Shown: in pieces, positions 3,514-8,630 of the stretch
How positions within the stretch are numbered: the first letter of the stretch is position 1
Layout of the letters: every line of letters begins with the position of its first letter
DNA from: Roseivirga sp. 4D4
GTDB lineage: Bacteria; Bacteroidota; Bacteroidia; Cytophagales; Cyclobacteriaceae
Length of the DNA stretch: 64,000 nucleotides
Assembly (NCBI RefSeq): GCF_001747095.1
Contig: NZ_MDGP01000001.1
Location: 355,001-419,000 of the forward strand
Reading direction: 5' to 3'
Notes under the pieces: model-generated
What the model was told of the DNA's origin: nothing
The model's database searches: none
The model's input: only the letters and a program-made list of their open reading frames with translations
Program-made: the position numbers and the translations under genes

Positions 3514-3547
3514 TAGAACGATTGGGTTTGGGTGTTAATACCGCTGG

Positions 3548-3555
3548 CAAAATTA
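3548..3555 (-). promoter_or_regulatory. Candidate -7 element of the purL promoter
   Basis: On the minus strand this reads TAATTTTG, an exact match to the Bacteroidota -7 consensus TAnnTTTG, about 35 bases before the purL start. No convincing -33 TTTG was found at the right distance, so the call rests on the -7 element and position. The rest of the 3514-3791 interval holds a short hairpin (CAGAAA/TTTCTG, 3662-3679) and the presumed promoter of the next gene, which I could not place. Confidence 0.4.
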
Positions 3556-3791
3556 AGAAAATCTTTGAGTTTAGAAGTATCTGAAGAAGGATATCAATAC
3601 CCTTTTAAAAAGCTTAACGTCTAGCCTAATTTTCTGTGACTAGGTATAAATACGTGATTTTCAGAAACCCGAATTTCTGCGCTTAAAATCCGCTTTTTAA
3701 TCGGCCACATTTGGATCATAGATTTTAATAAACACATGGCGGATACCGAAAAGCCTTTGATAGAGTAGGTAAACAATTAAACACAAATACA

Positions 3792-4625
3792 ATGAGCACA
3801 CTTAATGCCCAAACTATTGATTTTTCCGTTGCTGATCCAAAAGCAACGAGCAACCTTTCATTACCCTTGTATCAGGGGGCTGACTACAGAGCTGACTTCA
3901 AGACCTGGTCTTTAATCGAAGGAGGAGGATTTATGAAGTTCAATCTTTCTCTTGCTGATGCAATTCCAGTTGCATTTTCCTTGAACGTTGCTGCGGCCTT
4001 GGTAGATGGTAAAGCAAATTGTCCGATCACGATTACAGTGAATGGTCAGACACTTGTCAAGTCTTACAGTGATCATAACCCTGGCTTTCATGAGGTCACA
4101 TGGACAATTCCAGCAGATAGGTTGACTTCTGGTGACAACGAGGTACTAGTCAGCCTTGATCAATCTGCCACTACACAGCTATTCATAAATGCGACAGGTG
4201 TTGACCAGGCGGTACTGGCAAACCAGTCTATTAACCTGACAATACCTAACCCTTCTCAGTCGGCACAGCTTTCTATGCCACTTTATCAGGGTGCCGGATA
4301 CAGAGCAGACTTTAGAACCTGGTCATTACTGGTTAATGGTGGCTTCATGCGCTTTCAACTGGATCTTCCCGAGGCGATTGATGTAGACTTGACTGTTGAT
4401 GTTGCTTCTGCATTAGTCAATGGCAAAGCAAATTCACCAAGTACCATTACTGTCAATGGCAAGCCCTTCTGGCAGATGGACCCTAAGAACAGCGGCTTTG
4501 AAGCGTCTACAAAGACGATACCTTCAGGTGCCTTGAAAGCTGGTGGCAATACCATCGAATTGAGTTTGGATGCATCTGCTTCCGGGCAATTATTCATCAA
4601 TGAGATTGGTGTTTACGGAGGCTAA
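3792..4625 (+). CDS. Two-repeat, beta-rich protein without signal peptide, unknown function
   Basis: The function is not recognised. The 277-residue protein is an internal duplication. Residues about 7-138 and 145-277 align along their length, sharing SLPLYQGADYRADFKTWSL / SMPLYQGAGYRADFRTWSL, then GGFM(K/R)F, (V/L)A(A/S)ALV(D/N)GKAN, TITVNG and a closing QLFIN. The alternating hydrophobic pattern and Gly/Asn turns suggest two beta-sandwich modules, as in carbohydrate-binding domains; that fold is my inference. There is no signal peptide, lipobox or membrane segment, so it is cytosolic or leaves by a non-Sec route. It heads a same-strand trio with a GH18-like gene and a Cys-tailed gene, which supports a glycan-related role without proving it. 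The ATG at 3792 follows an A-rich leader. Confidence 0.85.
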   Translation: MSTLNAQTIDFSVADPKATSNLSLPLYQGADYRADFKTWSLIEGGGFMKFNLSLADAIPVAFSLNVAAALVDGKANCPITITVNGQTLVKSYSDHNPGFHEVTWTIPADRLTSGDNEVLVSLDQSATTQLFINATGVDQAVLANQSINLTIPNPSQSAQLSMPLYQGAGYRADFRTWSLLVNGGFMRFQLDLPEAIDVDLTVDVASALVNGKANSPSTITVNGKPFWQMDPKNSGFEASTKTIPSGALKAGGNTIELSLDASASGQLFINEIGVYGG

Positions 4626-4650
4626 TCGCCCTCAACTTTTAACCAAATCA

Positions 4651-4679
4651 GAACCCGGGAGCAAATGAGTCTCGGGTTC
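4651..4679 (+). other. Intercistronic RNA hairpin
   Basis: GAACCCGGGA (4651-4660) pairs with TCTCGGGTTC (4670-4679), a 10-position stem with one G-T pair and a 9-base loop. It lies between the two-repeat protein and the GH18-like gene. No T-run follows, so it looks more like an mRNA-stabilising or attenuating structure than a full terminator. It could make the first gene more abundant than the next two. Confidence 0.55.
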
Positions 4680-4710
4680 ATTACCAAAACACAATTCACA
4701 AAACCTTAAT

Positions 4711-5529
4711 ATGATGAAAAAAGATAAAATGTTTAATGGCTATTGGATGGGCTATCAACCTAATGGCAATACGCTTGGAGTCACTCCACCTTATGTAAAT
4801 ACAGTTACACTATTTGTGGCAGGAGCTGCTCCTGATGGTACATCAGTTGGTTTCAATTTTCTGACCAAGGCCTATCCTGCAAAAGATCAGATTGCCTGGG
4901 CGAGGCAATTACAGGCTCAGGGTACGGAAGTGCTTATGAGTATTATGGATTCATCTACTATTCAGTGGAACGAAGTGGATATTCCTGCTTATGTGCAGAA
5001 TTTTAAGGATGTAGTAATCGATGGAGAATGGGGCTTGAATGGTGTGGATATTGATTTAGAGTCAGGAATGCCAGATGATATTTGGGCTAGTACTTTTACT
5101 GAACTCATCCAGGAATTTAGAAAAGTACTGGGGCCAAAGGGTACCACGGACAGTTCCGGAAAAAACATTTCGAGGATGTCTGTTGCTGCCTATAGACCTA
5201 CTAAGGAAAAACCCATTTTATCTTCCGCAGGGACAGATTTAGACTGGCTGAATACCATGGCCTATTGGAATAGCGCAACAGATAATGAAGTCCTCTTCGA
5301 TACATACTCCCAGTATGTGGAGCAAGTGAATTTGGGTATTGGGGTCGATTATCAGAATGGTATGTCCACTGCTTTGAAGCAGGTAGAGCAGGCGGCCAAG
5401 TTTGCTGCACAAACCGATAACTGCGGTATGATGGAGTTTGCTTTGAACAATGATTGTGAAGAATACTCAGGACATCCCCAGTGGACGTGGGCTTCAATAA
5501 TTAATGAAAACATGAACGGTCTGATGTAA
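4711..5529 (+). CDS. Leaderless, divergent GH18-like (chitinase/endo-glycosidase fold) protein
   Basis: At 272 residues this is about the size of a bare GH18 TIM barrel. The beta-4 signature is NGVDIDLE (residues 110-117): of the family pattern DxxDxDxE, the last two Asp (113, 115) and the catalytic Glu117 remain, but the first Asp is Asn. The beta-3 strand reads VLMSIMD in place of the usual SxGG. The beta-6 strand reads NTMAYW, keeping the Tyr of the MxYD motif but losing the Asp. Activity is therefore plausible but may be altered, with EndoH-like enzymes a closer comparison than classic chitinases. There is no signal peptide, unusual for a chitinase. It sits between the two-repeat protein and a Cys-tailed protein. 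Start choice between Met1 and Met2 is arbitrary. Confidence 0.75.
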   Translation: MMKKDKMFNGYWMGYQPNGNTLGVTPPYVNTVTLFVAGAAPDGTSVGFNFLTKAYPAKDQIAWARQLQAQGTEVLMSIMDSSTIQWNEVDIPAYVQNFKDVVIDGEWGLNGVDIDLESGMPDDIWASTFTELIQEFRKVLGPKGTTDSSGKNISRMSVAAYRPTKEKPILSSAGTDLDWLNTMAYWNSATDNEVLFDTYSQYVEQVNLGIGVDYQNGMSTALKQVEQAAKFAAQTDNCGMMEFALNNDCEEYSGHPQWTWASIINENMNGLM

Positions 5530-5598
5530 TAGAAGACTGTGATAATACGGACGATTTCTTAATTTGTAATTGAATAAATACACTTAAATCAGAGACTT

Positions 5599-6540
5599 AT
5601 GGAGAAGATAGGCAATAATGAAGCCCAGGCACAGATAATGGCCTGGGCGGAATGCAAAGGAAACGAGCTATTCAACTGCTTTCAAAAGTTTGAAGCAGCA
5701 GATTGCAAAAATTGCAATGGTGGGCAGTTCCATCGTCAACGCGGGGTGAGCTTCGGACAAATTGATTCAGGTTTGTTGCAGTTTGTAACTCAGGAAATGC
5801 CAAAGATGAAATACCCGCAATTGGCGATGTGTATGGCAATAGCCGACAACGCAATCTCGGTGTTGTTTGAGACCATAGATGACGATGGCAACAAAAGCTA
5901 CTACGGTACCAATGACATTATTCAAAGCGCTTCCCGAACCTTGAGTAAAGCTGCTCGGGATTCATCAGCTAGACCTGCTAAGCGATATGGAATCCTTCCT
6001 GTGGTGAGAGACCACCTTGCTGTCAATTGGCTGGGGCAAACACCTGGTGATATTGAAAAGCTTTTTTTGTCCCAAAAGCTGACGGATGTTTCTGATATTG
6101 AGGAGAAGGGTTTGGAGGATATTATTGAAGGTGTTGCTGGCTGGCTTGAAGGAGGTCGTCAGGGTAACCCACCCATAAATCTTCATAACGTAGTCAACGA
6201 GATTAGTGATCCCTTTAACCGAGTGGCGGTCAGGGTGATGAAGTATCCCATTATTGGATACAACTTGGAAGTACTCAAGCTTATCCTCAAGGAGACCAGT
6301 GAAATCGCCATAACCTTTGCGGTTAACCCGGCAGATTTCTACTATAATGACGACTTATTTACCCTGATCCTAGAAATTGGTACAGGTAATACAGAAGTGA
6401 AAGCAGCGGCTGGAAAGAAAGGGGAAGAGATAGAGAAAGAGGATGACGAAGGAGATGAAACAACCTTTTTAGATTTCGTCAATGCTTGTCCACCATTTTG
6501 TTGTGGTGCTCCTGGACAACCTCCGTGCCCACCAGACTGA
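5599..6540 (+). CDS. Unknown protein with Cys-rich head and Cys/Pro-rich tail
   Basis: I do not recognise this 313-residue protein. The N-terminus has Cys at about 19, 27, 36 and 39, including CKNC. The middle (about 60-270) is mixed alpha-helical with no obvious membrane segment or signal peptide. An acidic/Lys stretch follows (about 275-290), and the last 20 residues carry four Cys among prolines (ACPPFCCGAPGQPPCPPD). The Cys pattern could hold metal or disulfides; this is inference. It is third in the cassette, 69 bases after the GH18-like gene, and is followed 5 bases later by the membrane protein of a two-component module, so read-through into that module is possible. Confidence 0.8.
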   Translation: MEKIGNNEAQAQIMAWAECKGNELFNCFQKFEAADCKNCNGGQFHRQRGVSFGQIDSGLLQFVTQEMPKMKYPQLAMCMAIADNAISVLFETIDDDGNKSYYGTNDIIQSASRTLSKAARDSSARPAKRYGILPVVRDHLAVNWLGQTPGDIEKLFLSQKLTDVSDIEEKGLEDIIEGVAGWLEGGRQGNPPINLHNVVNEISDPFNRVAVRVMKYPIIGYNLEVLKLILKETSEIAITFAVNPADFYYNDDLFTLILEIGTGNTEVKAAAGKKGEEIEKEDDEGDETTFLDFVNACPPFCCGAPGQPPCPPD

Positions 6541-6545
6541 TAACT

Positions 6546-7205
6546 ATGGATGTTTTATTTGAATTCATAAACAATTACATCTCATACTTTTACTTGGTGA
6601 TATGCATCCCATTGTTAATTGGAGTTATTAAGTTTCAAAGGCTTAACTACCTACAGAGGTTGGTCTTCATTATCGTCCTAATTGCTTTGGTTAACGAGGC
6701 GCTAGCCACTTACTTGAGAATGAGAGGGGTTAATAATCTCTGGGTTTATCATCTGTTCGTACCATGTACCTTTCTTGTGGTATTAAGGATTTACAAAAGA
6801 GTATTTGAGGAGGTTATTACAAGGAGGGTCTTTAATGCCATTTCAATAGGTTTCTTGCTTTTTGCGGTGCTTAATAGTCTATTTATTCAACCTCTCGATG
6901 TGTTTAATTCAAACACTATAACTGTTTCAAGTGTCCTATACATACTCTTGTCAATCACATATTTTCATCAGCTCTTGAGAGGTACTGCACTTTTAGCCTT
7001 AGAGAGAACTCCTATGTTTTGGTTAAATACTGGGGTCCTTATTTATTATTCTGGCACTCTTTTACTCTATGTTATGGTCAATTATGTAGCCGGATTGGGG
7101 GAAACTGCGAAGGTGTCTATTAGCCTATGGGCTTTGAATATATTATTCAACATCATTCTTAATGTTTTTTATGCTTTAGCACTATGGGTGAGTCCGCAGA
7201 AATAG
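6546..7205 (+). CDS. Multi-pass membrane protein preceding a sensor kinase
   Basis: This 219-residue protein has about six to seven hydrophobic spans and short loops, with no catalytic motif. I chose ATG 6546 (MDVLFEFINN), just after the previous stop; a longer reading from 6486 would run through the Cys-tailed gene in another frame. Its 3' end overlaps the kinase start by 22 bases (7184-7205), so the two are probably translated together. The context suggests a membrane input or partner of the NarL-type kinase. No named family is recognised. Confidence 0.8.
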   Translation: MDVLFEFINNYISYFYLVICIPLLIGVIKFQRLNYLQRLVFIIVLIALVNEALATYLRMRGVNNLWVYHLFVPCTFLVVLRIYKRVFEEVITRRVFNAISIGFLLFAVLNSLFIQPLDVFNSNTITVSSVLYILLSITYFHQLLRGTALLALERTPMFWLNTGVLIYYSGTLLLYVMVNYVAGLGETAKVSISLWALNILFNIILNVFYALALWVSPQK

Positions 7206-7984
7206 GTGTTTCGGATGTTATATTAATCGGTATGTTAGGAATGTTCTTTCTAGCCCTAGGTGTGGTGCTTTTTTTCTTAGTTTACCAACGCAGATTACTA
7301 AAACAGCAAAAAGAACATCAACAAAAGGAAGCCGAATATCAACAACAATTGTTGCGAGCCAACCTTCTAAGTCAGGAAAAGGAGCGTAACCGAATTGGCA
7401 AAGATCTGCATGATGAAGTAGGGGCCATGCTCACCACCTCCAAACTCTATTTCAGGCACCTTGCGCAGAATGCCCCCAAGGAGAAATTTACCGAGTTAAA
7501 GGACAAAGTCTTTGACTTGCTGGAAGGAACTATCGCGAGCGTAAGAAGGGTCTCACATGACCTCAGACCAGTAGTCCTAGAGACCTTAGGGTTGGAAGAA
7601 GCCGTAGCTAATATCCGAGATCAATTGAACGCCTCTGGAGAGGTTCAAATGGTATTTGAGAGTGACTGGAAAGGGGTAATGACGAAGGAGTATCAATTGA
7701 ACTGGTATCGTATCATTCAGGAATTGGTCAATAATACCCTCAAACATGCGAATGCCAACCGAATAGCAATTCATATGTCAGGAAATGGCGATCAACTGAA
7801 GTTGAGCTATAACGATAATGGCATTGGCATGGCCAGTGGCAAGCATGAGCCAGGATTGGGTTTAAGCAATATTGAAAGTAGGTTGAGCCTAATGAATGGG
7901 GAGCTGATTTTCAATGAGACTGAGAAAGGAATTTCTATTGAACTGACATCTGAGATAACAAAAGACACACAGAAAGATGACTAA
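7184..7984 (+). CDS. NarL-type sensor histidine kinase (HisKA_3), single membrane anchor
   Basis: The N-terminal hydrophobic segment (about 12-33) is followed by a coiled coil rich in Gln/Lys/Glu (36-70). The phosphorylation helix RIGKDLHDEVG puts the acceptor at His76. The HATPase domain follows, with the N-box QELVNNTLKHA, DNGIGM (G1) and GLGLSNIESR (G2). At 266 residues there is no room for a periplasmic sensor domain, so the signal probably comes through the upstream membrane protein. Its stop overlaps the response regulator start by 8 bases. It belongs to the same class as DegS/NarX-type kinases in Bacteroidota; no specific stimulus can be assigned. Confidence 0.93.
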   Translation: MGESAEIGVSDVILIGMLGMFFLALGVVLFFLVYQRRLLKQQKEHQQKEAEYQQQLLRANLLSQEKERNRIGKDLHDEVGAMLTTSKLYFRHLAQNAPKEKFTELKDKVFDLLEGTIASVRRVSHDLRPVVLETLGLEEAVANIRDQLNASGEVQMVFESDWKGVMTKEYQLNWYRIIQELVNNTLKHANANRIAIHMSGNGDQLKLSYNDNGIGMASGKHEPGLGLSNIESRLSLMNGELIFNETEKGISIELTSEITKDTQKDD

Positions 7985-8630
7985 TATTCAGGTAGCGATA
8001 GCAGACGATCATAAACTCTTCAGAGAGGGTATCCATTTTTTGATAGATCAAATGGAAGGGATCTCCATATGCTTTGAAGTGGCTGATGGTAAGGAGCTGA
8101 TAATCCGATTAAAGGAAGAAGTCCCTGATGTCCTATTACTTGATCTTGATATGCCTGAAATGGATGGTATCGAAGTTTTGAAAGAGGTTCGCTCCCTTTA
8201 CTCATCAATGGGTGTTATAATTCTCACCATGCATAGTGATGCTAAGATGATAGCCTATTTAATGGAATTGGGTGCGAACGGTTATTTAATGAAGGACACC
8301 AGTCCCGAAGAACTTGAGCAAGCGATTAGGAGTGTAAAGGAAGAAGGCTTCTATTTCAACAAGGCAGTCTCAGAAGCCATGTTAGGGGGCTTGAAAAATC
8401 ATAGTCCAAAAAAGCCAGTGCTCAAAAATAATGTCACTTTAACCAGCCGAGAGATAGAAGTCCTGGAATTAATCTGTCAAGAATATACGGCCAAGGAGAT
8501 TGCTGAGAAGCTGTTTATCAGTCCACGAACTGCCGAAGGTCACCGAAGAAGCCTTATCGAAAAACTTGGCGTTAAAAATACGGCAGGGTTAATCGTTCGG
8601 GCTGTGAAGGAAGGCCTGATTGATATCTAG
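7977..8630 (+). CDS. NarL/LuxR-type response regulator
   Basis: The receiver domain (about 1-125) has the acidic pocket DD (10-11), phospho-acceptor Asp56 in LLLDLDMPEMDG, switch Thr in ILTMHSD and the conserved Lys in YLMKD. The C-terminal LuxR-type helix-turn-helix (about 150-212) reads LTSREIEVLELICQEYTAKE, then the recognition helix SPRTAEGHRRSLIEKLG. It is the cognate partner of the kinase with which it overlaps. Targets are unknown; the adjacent permease on the opposite strand is a possible but unproven one. Confidence 0.95.
   Translation: MTNIQVAIADDHKLFREGIHFLIDQMEGISICFEVADGKELIIRLKEEVPDVLLLDLDMPEMDGIEVLKEVRSLYSSMGVIILTMHSDAKMIAYLMELGANGYLMKDTSPEELEQAIRSVKEEGFYFNKAVSEAMLGGLKNHSPKKPVLKNNVTLTSREIEVLELICQEYTAKEIAEKLFISPRTAEGHRRSLIEKLGVKNTAGLIVRAVKEGLIDI

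What the first reader, a model, noticed from the sequence alone, without database searches (positions are those of the whole stretch)
3792..6540. Leaderless three-gene cassette: duplicated beta-rich protein, divergent GH18 and Cys-tailed protein
Three consecutive genes on one strand encode proteins with no signal peptide. One is a tandem-repeat domain with carbohydrate-binding-like features, one a GH18-like protein with altered motifs, one an unknown with Cys-rich ends. Chitinase-like enzymes are normally exported. A glycan-active enzyme with a possible lectin, both without Sec signals, suggests an intracellular glycan process, release on lysis, or export by a contractile or other non-Sec machine. 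I know of no described system with this set.
Basis: partly seen in the sequence, partly recalled or inferred. Interest (0 to 1): 0.7.

Follow-up and report, generated by a model that had tools for sequence, protein, structure and literature searches.

The report
RNA-led leaderless glycan payload beside signal operon
Two bacterial proteins without export signals, one that probably binds sugars and one that probably cuts them, sit behind a conserved RNA element of unknown function and next to a signalling operon; in related bacteria the same slot carries other genes, some lectin-like, which hints at what this orphan RNA controls.

Summary
The three ORFs are real and leaderless, but are not one cassette. 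Genes 1 and 2 (two CBM35/36/6-like domains in tandem; a GH18 enzyme keeping its catalytic D, D and E) form a payload unit headed by Rfam DUF805b RNA, an orphan cis-element (3736-3771), the only copy my search found in this genome. Gene 3 starts another unit: CPxxC-tailed protein, membrane protein, histidine kinase, LuxR regulator. In 38 of 45 membrane-protein ORFs examined, the gene just upstream ends in a CPPxC-like tail. In sister species the payload slot holds unrelated leaderless genes (one LecB-like lectin, several unknowns), with DUF805b in 5 of 7 loci, two of these below threshold. The tandem CBM-like gene has DUF805b upstream in 4 of 4 loci (3 below Rfam's threshold) and lies beside the signal operon in the 3 with enough context. 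DUF805b lies within 3 kb of 12 of 52 membrane-protein loci (0.35 expected). No contractile sheath gene was found, nor the exact trio elsewhere. Most likely: a signal-regulated, swappable, released glycan-acting payload. Release route, target, and control of the RNA-led genes by the operon are inferred.

The parts
3736..3771 (+). DUF805b RNA (Rfam RF02914), cis-regulatory leader; 20 nt between its end and the ATG of gene 1
   Evidence: cmscan 44.5 bits, gathering 35.6; only site at E<=0.001 in the own genome, where 129 of 2805 first-look candidates were scored; stem and pseudoknot covary in relatives
3792..4625 (+). Gene 1: leaderless tandem of two CBM35/CBM36/CBM6-like beta-sandwich domains (about residues 5-140 and 143-277)
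4651..4679 (+). Inverted repeat GAACCCG...CGGGTTC between genes 1 and 2; no T run
   Evidence: read from the sequence
4711..5529 (+). Gene 2: leaderless GH18, EndoS/chitinase-like, catalytic D112, D114, E116 present
   Evidence: PF23916 38.6 bits (cut-off 27), PF00704 26.1 bits (cut-off 29.6); alignment; profile matches to solved chitinases and Endo H
5599..6540 (+). Gene 3: CPxxC-tailed protein, first gene of the signalling operon; tail TFLDFVNACPPFCC
6546..7205 (+). Multi-pass membrane protein, conserved partner of CPxxC-tailed genes; no Pfam match above cut-off and no PDB match
   Evidence: start read
7184..7984 (+). Histidine kinase (HisKA_3 + HATPase_c) with a short N-terminal membrane segment
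   Evidence: membrane segment read from the sequence
7977..8630 (+). LuxR-type response regulator (Response_reg + GerE)

Best explanation
Genes 1 and 2 are a payload unit: a leaderless glycan-binding protein and a leaderless GlcNAc-linkage hydrolase, translated from an mRNA that carries the DUF805b pseudoknot RNA just before gene 1. The unit sits in a slot beside a conserved signalling operon (CPxxC-tailed protein, membrane protein, small histidine kinase, LuxR regulator). In related bacteria that slot is filled by other, unrelated genes, among them a LecB-like lectin, mostly behind the same RNA. Most likely the kinase and regulator sense an envelope or external cue through the membrane protein and the CPxxC-tailed protein and switch the neighbouring payload on. 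The payload then acts on foreign glycans after release by lysis or by a non-Sec route. Shown: anatomy, co-location, RNA identity and covariation, conserved catalytic residues, predicted fold. Inferred: control of the RNA-led genes by the operon, glycan target, release route and antagonistic or anti-predator purpose.
For: DUF805b lies 20 nt before gene 1 and is the only copy found in the genome. Of 15 other loci with the operon scanned, 7 have DUF805b at gathering score before a gene beside the operon (L010, L013, L014, L016, L055, L056, L058). Two more have it below (L054 27.8 bits, L124 23.6 bits), and L015 by eye. Co-location: 12 of 52 membrane-protein loci outside the own genome have a DUF805b site within 3 kb, 0.35 expected (Poisson p 5e-15); without the four genomes found through gene 3, 10 of 48 against 0.32; without the genomes in which I first saw the motif, 4 of 36 against 0.085 (p 2e-6). 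The tandem beta gene has DUF805b upstream in 4 of 4 loci: window 44.5 bits, L010 33.9 and L124 23.6 bits, both below the cut-off of 35.6, and L011 by eye. It lies beside the operon in the 3 with enough context. Among 87 proteins encoded just downstream of DUF805b, matches at E<=0.01 include H-type lectin (2), ricin-B lectin (2), tyrosinase, lipase, PixA (E 0.0028) and T9SS tails (5), and MakCD.
Against: Co-location is not control. In the genomes searched for both, DUF805b also occurs without the membrane protein (G014: 3 sites, 0 matches) and the membrane protein without DUF805b (G107, G313, G262, G048, G085). Forty of the 52 membrane-protein loci have no DUF805b within 3 kb. Two of seven congeneric loci, L017 and L053, have the operon but no DUF805b. 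DUF805b also precedes Sec-type, outer-membrane and lipoprotein genes: 42 of 87 downstream proteins have a hydrophobic N-terminus, so it does not mark leaderless payload alone. The 40 genomes were my choice and include some where searches had already shown the pair. The window stretch 3700-3800 does not fold better than shuffles (z 0.40), although that program ignores pseudoknots. By whole-protein profile gene 3 has relatives only in its own genus among 291 order genomes (4 genomes), so its kinship with tail proteins elsewhere rests mainly on position and tail. No glycan specificity is predicted. GH18 and beta genes together were seen only in the window and, by equal contig length only, on one other contig.
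Confidence: 0.55

Rival explanations
1. DUF805b and the signal operon are independent. DUF805b is a general leader for highly expressed or exported-protein genes, and the operon merely sits in a variable region where such genes insert.
For: 40 of 52 membrane-protein loci have no DUF805b within 3 kb; each element occurs without the other in some genomes; 42 of 87 downstream proteins have a hydrophobic N-terminus.
Against: About 34-fold excess of close pairs, in several families, still present without the genomes in which the motif was first seen (4 of 36 against 0.085); the own genome gave one match of each and they share a locus.
Confidence: 0.25
2. Genes 1 and 2 serve an internal glycan process, such as turnover of imported GlcNAc oligosaccharides or glycoprotein fragments in the cytoplasm, and are not released.
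For: No hydrophobic N-terminus in any of 42 GH18 proteins or in 49 of 51 beta proteins.
Against: Two beta homologues have signal-peptide-like N-termini; beta domains are fused to tyrosinase, PI-PLC-X and an AvrRpt2-like protease; no recognisable transporter or sugar-catabolic gene in 3514-8630, though the membrane protein is of unknown function; the slot exchanges with unrelated genes.
Confidence: 0.15
3. The unit is cargo of a contractile injection machine.
For: Leaderless enzymes and lectin-like proteins are typical cargo of such machines (recalled, no call).
Against: No PF04984 sheath match in the own genome, 99.84% complete, while the control rang in 3 of 14 named genomes.
Confidence: 0.02

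Closest known systems
Rfam RF02914 DUF805b RNA
   Same: The leader is a member by score; stem covaries
   Different: Rfam's table gives it only as cis-regulatory. The association with leaderless payload genes and with the CPxxC-TM-HK-RR operon, the NCC/GGN pseudoknot, and a second abutting element were seen here; I could not read the original description, so some of this may be known
GH18 EndoS / chitinase family
   Same: TIM-barrel profile match and catalytic D, D, E
   Different: No export signal, about 270 residues with no accessory domain, first motif residue N in 22 of 26 rows
CBM35/CBM36/CBM6 carbohydrate-binding modules
   Different: Stand-alone, leaderless, tandem; not attached to a secreted enzyme; binding residues not tested
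Cytoplasmic fungal fruiting-body defence lectins (PMC3355094, start of abstract seen in the listing)
   Same: Leaderless lectin-like proteins as candidate deterrents
   Different: Analogy of logic only; no homology tested
Agr-type peptide signalling operons (recalled)
   Same: Precursor-like protein with conserved Cys tail, multi-pass membrane protein, kinase, regulator
   Different: Large variable protein rather than a short peptide; no protease motif identified; LuxR rather than LytTR regulator
Pseudomonas LecB / PA-IIL lectin (recalled as leaderless)
   Same: A LecB-like 132-residue protein fills the same slot in G007 (L015), PF07472 E 9e-4
   Different: 1 bit below the Pfam cut-off; unrelated to gene 1

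Membership tests
DUF805b RNA (RF02914) | Score at or above the curated gathering threshold | tested here: met
   44.5 against 35.6 bits
DUF805b RNA (RF02914) | Covarying 4-bp stem in the set | tested here: met
   95.2% of cells paired in the 78 of 90 distinct motifs that carry the anchor used; best of 500 shuffles 74.0%
DUF805b RNA (RF02914) | Ligand or protein partner | not testable with these tools
   none known to me
Glycoside hydrolase 18 | Pfam GH18-type profile above cut-off | tested here: inconclusive
   PF23916 38.6 bits above 27, PF00704 26.1 bits below 29.6
Glycoside hydrolase 18 | Catalytic Asp-Asp-Glu of DxxDxDxE | tested here: met
   D112, D114, E116 invariant in 26 of 26 aligned rows; first D is N in 22 of 26
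Glycoside hydrolase 18 | Enzymatic activity | not testable with these tools
   -
CBM35/36/6 superfamily | Beta-sandwich fold | tested here: met
CBM35/36/6 superfamily | Sequence profile of a carbohydrate-binding family above cut-off | tested here: not met
   PF14683 24.2 below 27 in the window protein; no PDB sequence match at E<=1
CBM35/36/6 superfamily | Sugar and calcium binding | not testable with these tools
   -
Two-component system | HisKA/HATPase kinase and receiver-HTH regulator, adjacent | tested here: met
   PF07730, PF02518; PF00072, PF00196
Contractile injection system cargo | Sheath gene in the genome | tested here: not met
   PF04984 0 of 1 genome
Anti-phage defence system | PADLOC model match in the payload or operon | tested here: not met
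   six proteins scanned; only weak matches of the regulator, best E 4.1e-5 to a CARF-HTH model

The most novel reading that the evidence does not exclude
DUF805b RNA marks a Bacteroidota regulon of released antagonistic proteins (leaderless lectins, hydrolases, pore-former-like and bacteriocin-precursor-like genes). The CPxxC-tailed protein with its membrane partner is the signal part of an Agr-like system: the conserved Cys tail is cut, modified or displayed by the membrane protein and read by the small kinase, so that payloads can be exchanged in front of a fixed signalling module.
Probability: 0.13. Interest if true: 0.9.

Novelty: new variant of a known kind. Interest (0 to 1): 0.7.

Why it matters
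It gives an orphan RNA class a testable context: which genes it leads, a covarying pseudoknot, and a neighbouring signal system. It also points to a widespread operon with a variable, CPxxC-tailed protein that matched no Pfam or NCBIfam family in the members tested, and to a slot where payload genes are exchanged. If right, DUF805b can be used to find antagonistic proteins that lack any signal peptide and escape standard secretome searches.

Tried and rejected
Rejected: contractile injection; anti-phage defence; phage origin of genes 1 and 2, no relatives in viral contigs and no PHROG match for genes 1-3 below E 0.05; a hidden signal peptide from a mis-called start; the trio as a conserved unit.

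Led nowhere: the AlphaFold model of gene 3 was poor (pLDDT 48) and was not searched. A Bacteroidota promoter pattern, recalled, gave no match near 3792 (1 match in the window, 2.4 expected). Pfam and PDB profiles gave nothing usable for the membrane protein. Paper searches found nothing on DUF805b (0 papers each), and the paper that I recall as its source is not held. Positional conservation upstream of DUF805b was weak when 39 congeneric sites were aligned on the RNA start.

Cautions on counts. The 40 loci fetched were my choice from the list, spread over genera. 45 membrane-protein ORFs survived ORF selection in 46 loci; four loci gave none and three gave two. The tail pattern was C[PS]x0-3C or CP[PS]G in the last 60 residues, gene end within 450 nt. 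The seven without a tail include one where a transposase-like ORF separates the tail gene (L084), one with the tail shape but no cysteines (L063) and one ending CPRPPSC (L085). In one search only 129 first-look candidates were scored per genome, so 148 sites is a lower bound, and sites down to E 0.001 include many below the Rfam cut-off. One search did not list all membrane-protein matches, so the 52 loci are those whose places I had. In one search twelve minus-strand loci were first read on the wrong strand and were redone. The 87 proteins and the 87 rows share 86 sequences.
Full report

GENE 3 BELONGS TO A SIGNALLING OPERON. Gene 3 is followed after 5 bp by a membrane-protein gene (6546-7205), which overlaps a histidine kinase gene, which overlaps a LuxR-type regulator gene. 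In five congeneric genomes found with gene 3 (G007, G009, G010, G011, G013) and in an Owenweeksia MAG (L010), the same order stands. A profile of gene 3 and its near relatives finds only the own genus among 291 order genomes (4 genomes), but a profile of the membrane protein matched 116 of 291. I fetched 40 loci from that list and took the six above as well. For 38 of 45 membrane-protein ORFs the gene directly upstream on the same strand ends in a CPPxC-like tail, while its length ranges from 108 to 433 residues. The gene 3 profile itself matched ten of the tailed proteins in these 40 loci at E<=0.01. As a control, only 2 of 656 other ORFs of 100 residues or more in these loci and L124 have CPxxC in the last 30 residues; both are tail genes of such operons that my first filter had missed. 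Some tailed proteins have a lipoprotein-like or membrane-anchor N-terminus (for example L124, L081, L086), others none. The ten tailed proteins tested have no Pfam match above cut-off, eight of them tested with NCBIfam also none, and seven membrane proteins have no Pfam match better than E 0.01.

THE PAYLOAD SLOT AND ITS RNA. In congeneric genomes the place of genes 1 and 2 is taken by unrelated genes: 160 aa (L013), 105 aa (L014), a LecB-like 132 aa protein (L015; PF07472 E 9e-4, 1 bit under cut-off), 237 aa (L016), about 100 aa (L054), and a group of larger genes in L017; L053 shows no obvious payload gene. Several upstream regions are alike although the genes are not. The common part is Rfam RF02914, DUF805b RNA: window 3736-3771, 44.5 bits against a cut-off of 35.6. 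In the seven congeneric loci it is found at gathering score in L013, L014 and L016, below it in L054 (27.8 bits), by eye with an insertion in L015 (not found by the model), and not in L017 and L053. Outside the genus it stands in L010, L055, L056, L058 and L125 at gathering score, and not at that score in L057, L059, L060, L124 and L011.

Over 40 genomes chosen by me there are 148 sites at E<=0.001 in 32 genomes, none in 14 named controls, and one in the own genome; 129 first-look candidates were scored in each genome, so these are lower bounds. I read the downstream gene for 93 entries, 92 distinct sites. Of 87 distinct downstream proteins, 76 start 16-28 nt after the RNA and 45 lack a hydrophobic N-terminus (the 76 counted again). 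In a nearly identical set of 87, matches at E<=0.01 include H-type lectin (2), ricin-B lectin (2), CBM-like (3) and DUF7383 (3), with gene 1 among the members of both, tyrosinase (1, a beta fusion), lipase (1), PixA (1, E 0.0028), T9SS tails (5) and outer-membrane barrels, and MakCD (1, E 4e-22). Short proteins resembling double-glycine bacteriocin precursors are my reading of sequences.

IS THE RNA REAL. In the 78 of 90 distinct motifs that carry the anchor used, 95.2% of stem cells pair, against at most 74.0% in 500 shuffles. The matches were found with a model of that stem, which favours it. A second helix, which the structure line of the Rfam model does not show, pairs the three loop bases before GAAA with the three bases after GAGTA. 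Its outer pair forms in 88.9% of 90 motifs, against at most 66.7% in 1000 shuffles; the other two pairs are nearly invariant, with compensatory changes in 2 and 5 motifs. Relatedness of the sequences is not corrected for. The window leader alone does not fold better than its shuffles without pseudoknots (z 0.40).

CO-LOCATION. Outside the own genome, 12 of 52 membrane-protein loci in 29 genomes have a DUF805b site within 3 kb; random placement gives 0.35 (Poisson p 5e-15). Leaving out the four genomes entered through gene 3 gives 10 of 48 against 0.32. Leaving out every genome in which I had first looked for the motif by eye gives 4 of 36 in 21 genomes against 0.085, p 2e-6. Genome sizes are rounded, contig ends ignored, and some of the remaining genomes had been scanned at the locus before I chose them. 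Against the link, 40 of 52 have none within 3 kb, and several genomes have one element without the other.

THE BETA GENE FOLLOWS THE SAME RULE. It is rare: 5 of 395 class genomes match the profile, only two with the full tandem; 1 of 64 genomes in the family of G674; 2 of 390 in the order, one of them a single domain. In L010 and L124 it stands divergent from a CPxxC-TM-HK-RR operon, in L010 with one small gene between. Matches of the membrane protein number 1 in the own genome, 2 in G674 and 7 in the Owenweeksia genome. The four tandem copies seen with their DNA context have a DUF805b just upstream: window 44.5 bits, L010 33.9 and L124 23.6 bits (both below the cut-off), and the Hymenobacter MAG L011 by eye. 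L011 is only 4.7 kb and cannot show the operon. Single beta domains are fused to tyrosinase (L125, with DUF805b; I saw no such operon in the genes listed around it), PI-PLC-X (L012, under the Pfam cut-off) and an AvrRpt2-type protease (P0051); two fusions with oxidase-like parts (P0050, L018) are my reading of the sequences. Neighbours in L124 include an L-lysine oxidase LodA and an alpha-helical protein without a named family.

HOW IT PROBABLY WORKS. I commit to a signal-regulated, exchangeable payload locus. The kinase pair, cued through the membrane protein and the CPxxC-tailed protein, raises expression of DUF805b-led genes nearby. In this strain these make a divalent glycan binder and a GlcNAc-linkage hydrolase that act on foreign glycans after lysis or non-Sec release. 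Anatomy, co-location and RNA identity are shown; regulation, target and release are inferred. The absence of a sheath match speaks against a contractile machine.

NOVELTY. Components are of known kinds; the combination was not found in the searches, which cover open-licence papers only and of which I saw the listings. I recall that DUF805b was described in a 2017 survey of candidate structured RNAs (I saw only its citation); what that paper says of the genes downstream, or of a pseudoknot, I could not read, so those two points may be known.

Noticed in passing
L011:686-786, L022:1018-1107, L173:680-773 and 1371-1467, L183:2375-2469(-), L184 three sites, L185 two sites: A second conserved RNA-like element (GTGGAGCAGNNCCCAC, A-rich run, then a pseudoknot-like part) abuts the 5' end of DUF805b at 10 distinct sites; own arms pair over 5 bp or more in 7 of 10 against 13 of 90 cross pairings; no Rfam match at the sites scanned in L173, L184 and L185. 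The window lacks the GTGGAGCAG core upstream of gene 1.
   Followed up: partly
L196, L175, L164, L185, L178: DUF805b in tandem, two copies about 80-110 nt apart before one gene
   Followed up: no
L124:12773-15752(-): LodA-type L-lysine oxidase and a flavoprotein next to the beta gene and the signal operon
   Followed up: partly
L124:7106-8542(-); L017:13880-19000(-): Leaderless-looking proteins of about 400-480 aa, several similar ones in L017, that look to me like alpha-pore-formers; the two scanned have no named family above cut-off
   Followed up: no
L010:362-4238(-): Radical SAM protein beside an 898-aa protein with a His/Asp-rich C-terminus, possibly a modified product, in the same locus as the beta gene
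   Followed up: no
P0083, P0095: Two metagenomic GH18 homologues end in ...CCTCF and ...SCLLL, resembling eukaryotic prenylation signals; a transfer to or from eukaryotes is possible
   Followed up: no
L080, L087: Duplicated membrane-protein genes with tail genes in one operon, which suggests that a tail protein has its own membrane partner
   Followed up: no
L063:8780-9232; L084:7803-9245: One tail protein has the tail shape without cysteines (SIYDFSRPVPPYPEG); one operon has a transposase-like ORF between tail gene and membrane-protein gene
   Followed up: no
window 4651-4679: A 7-bp inverted repeat between genes 1 and 2 could be a processing or partial termination site that sets their ratio
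   Followed up: no
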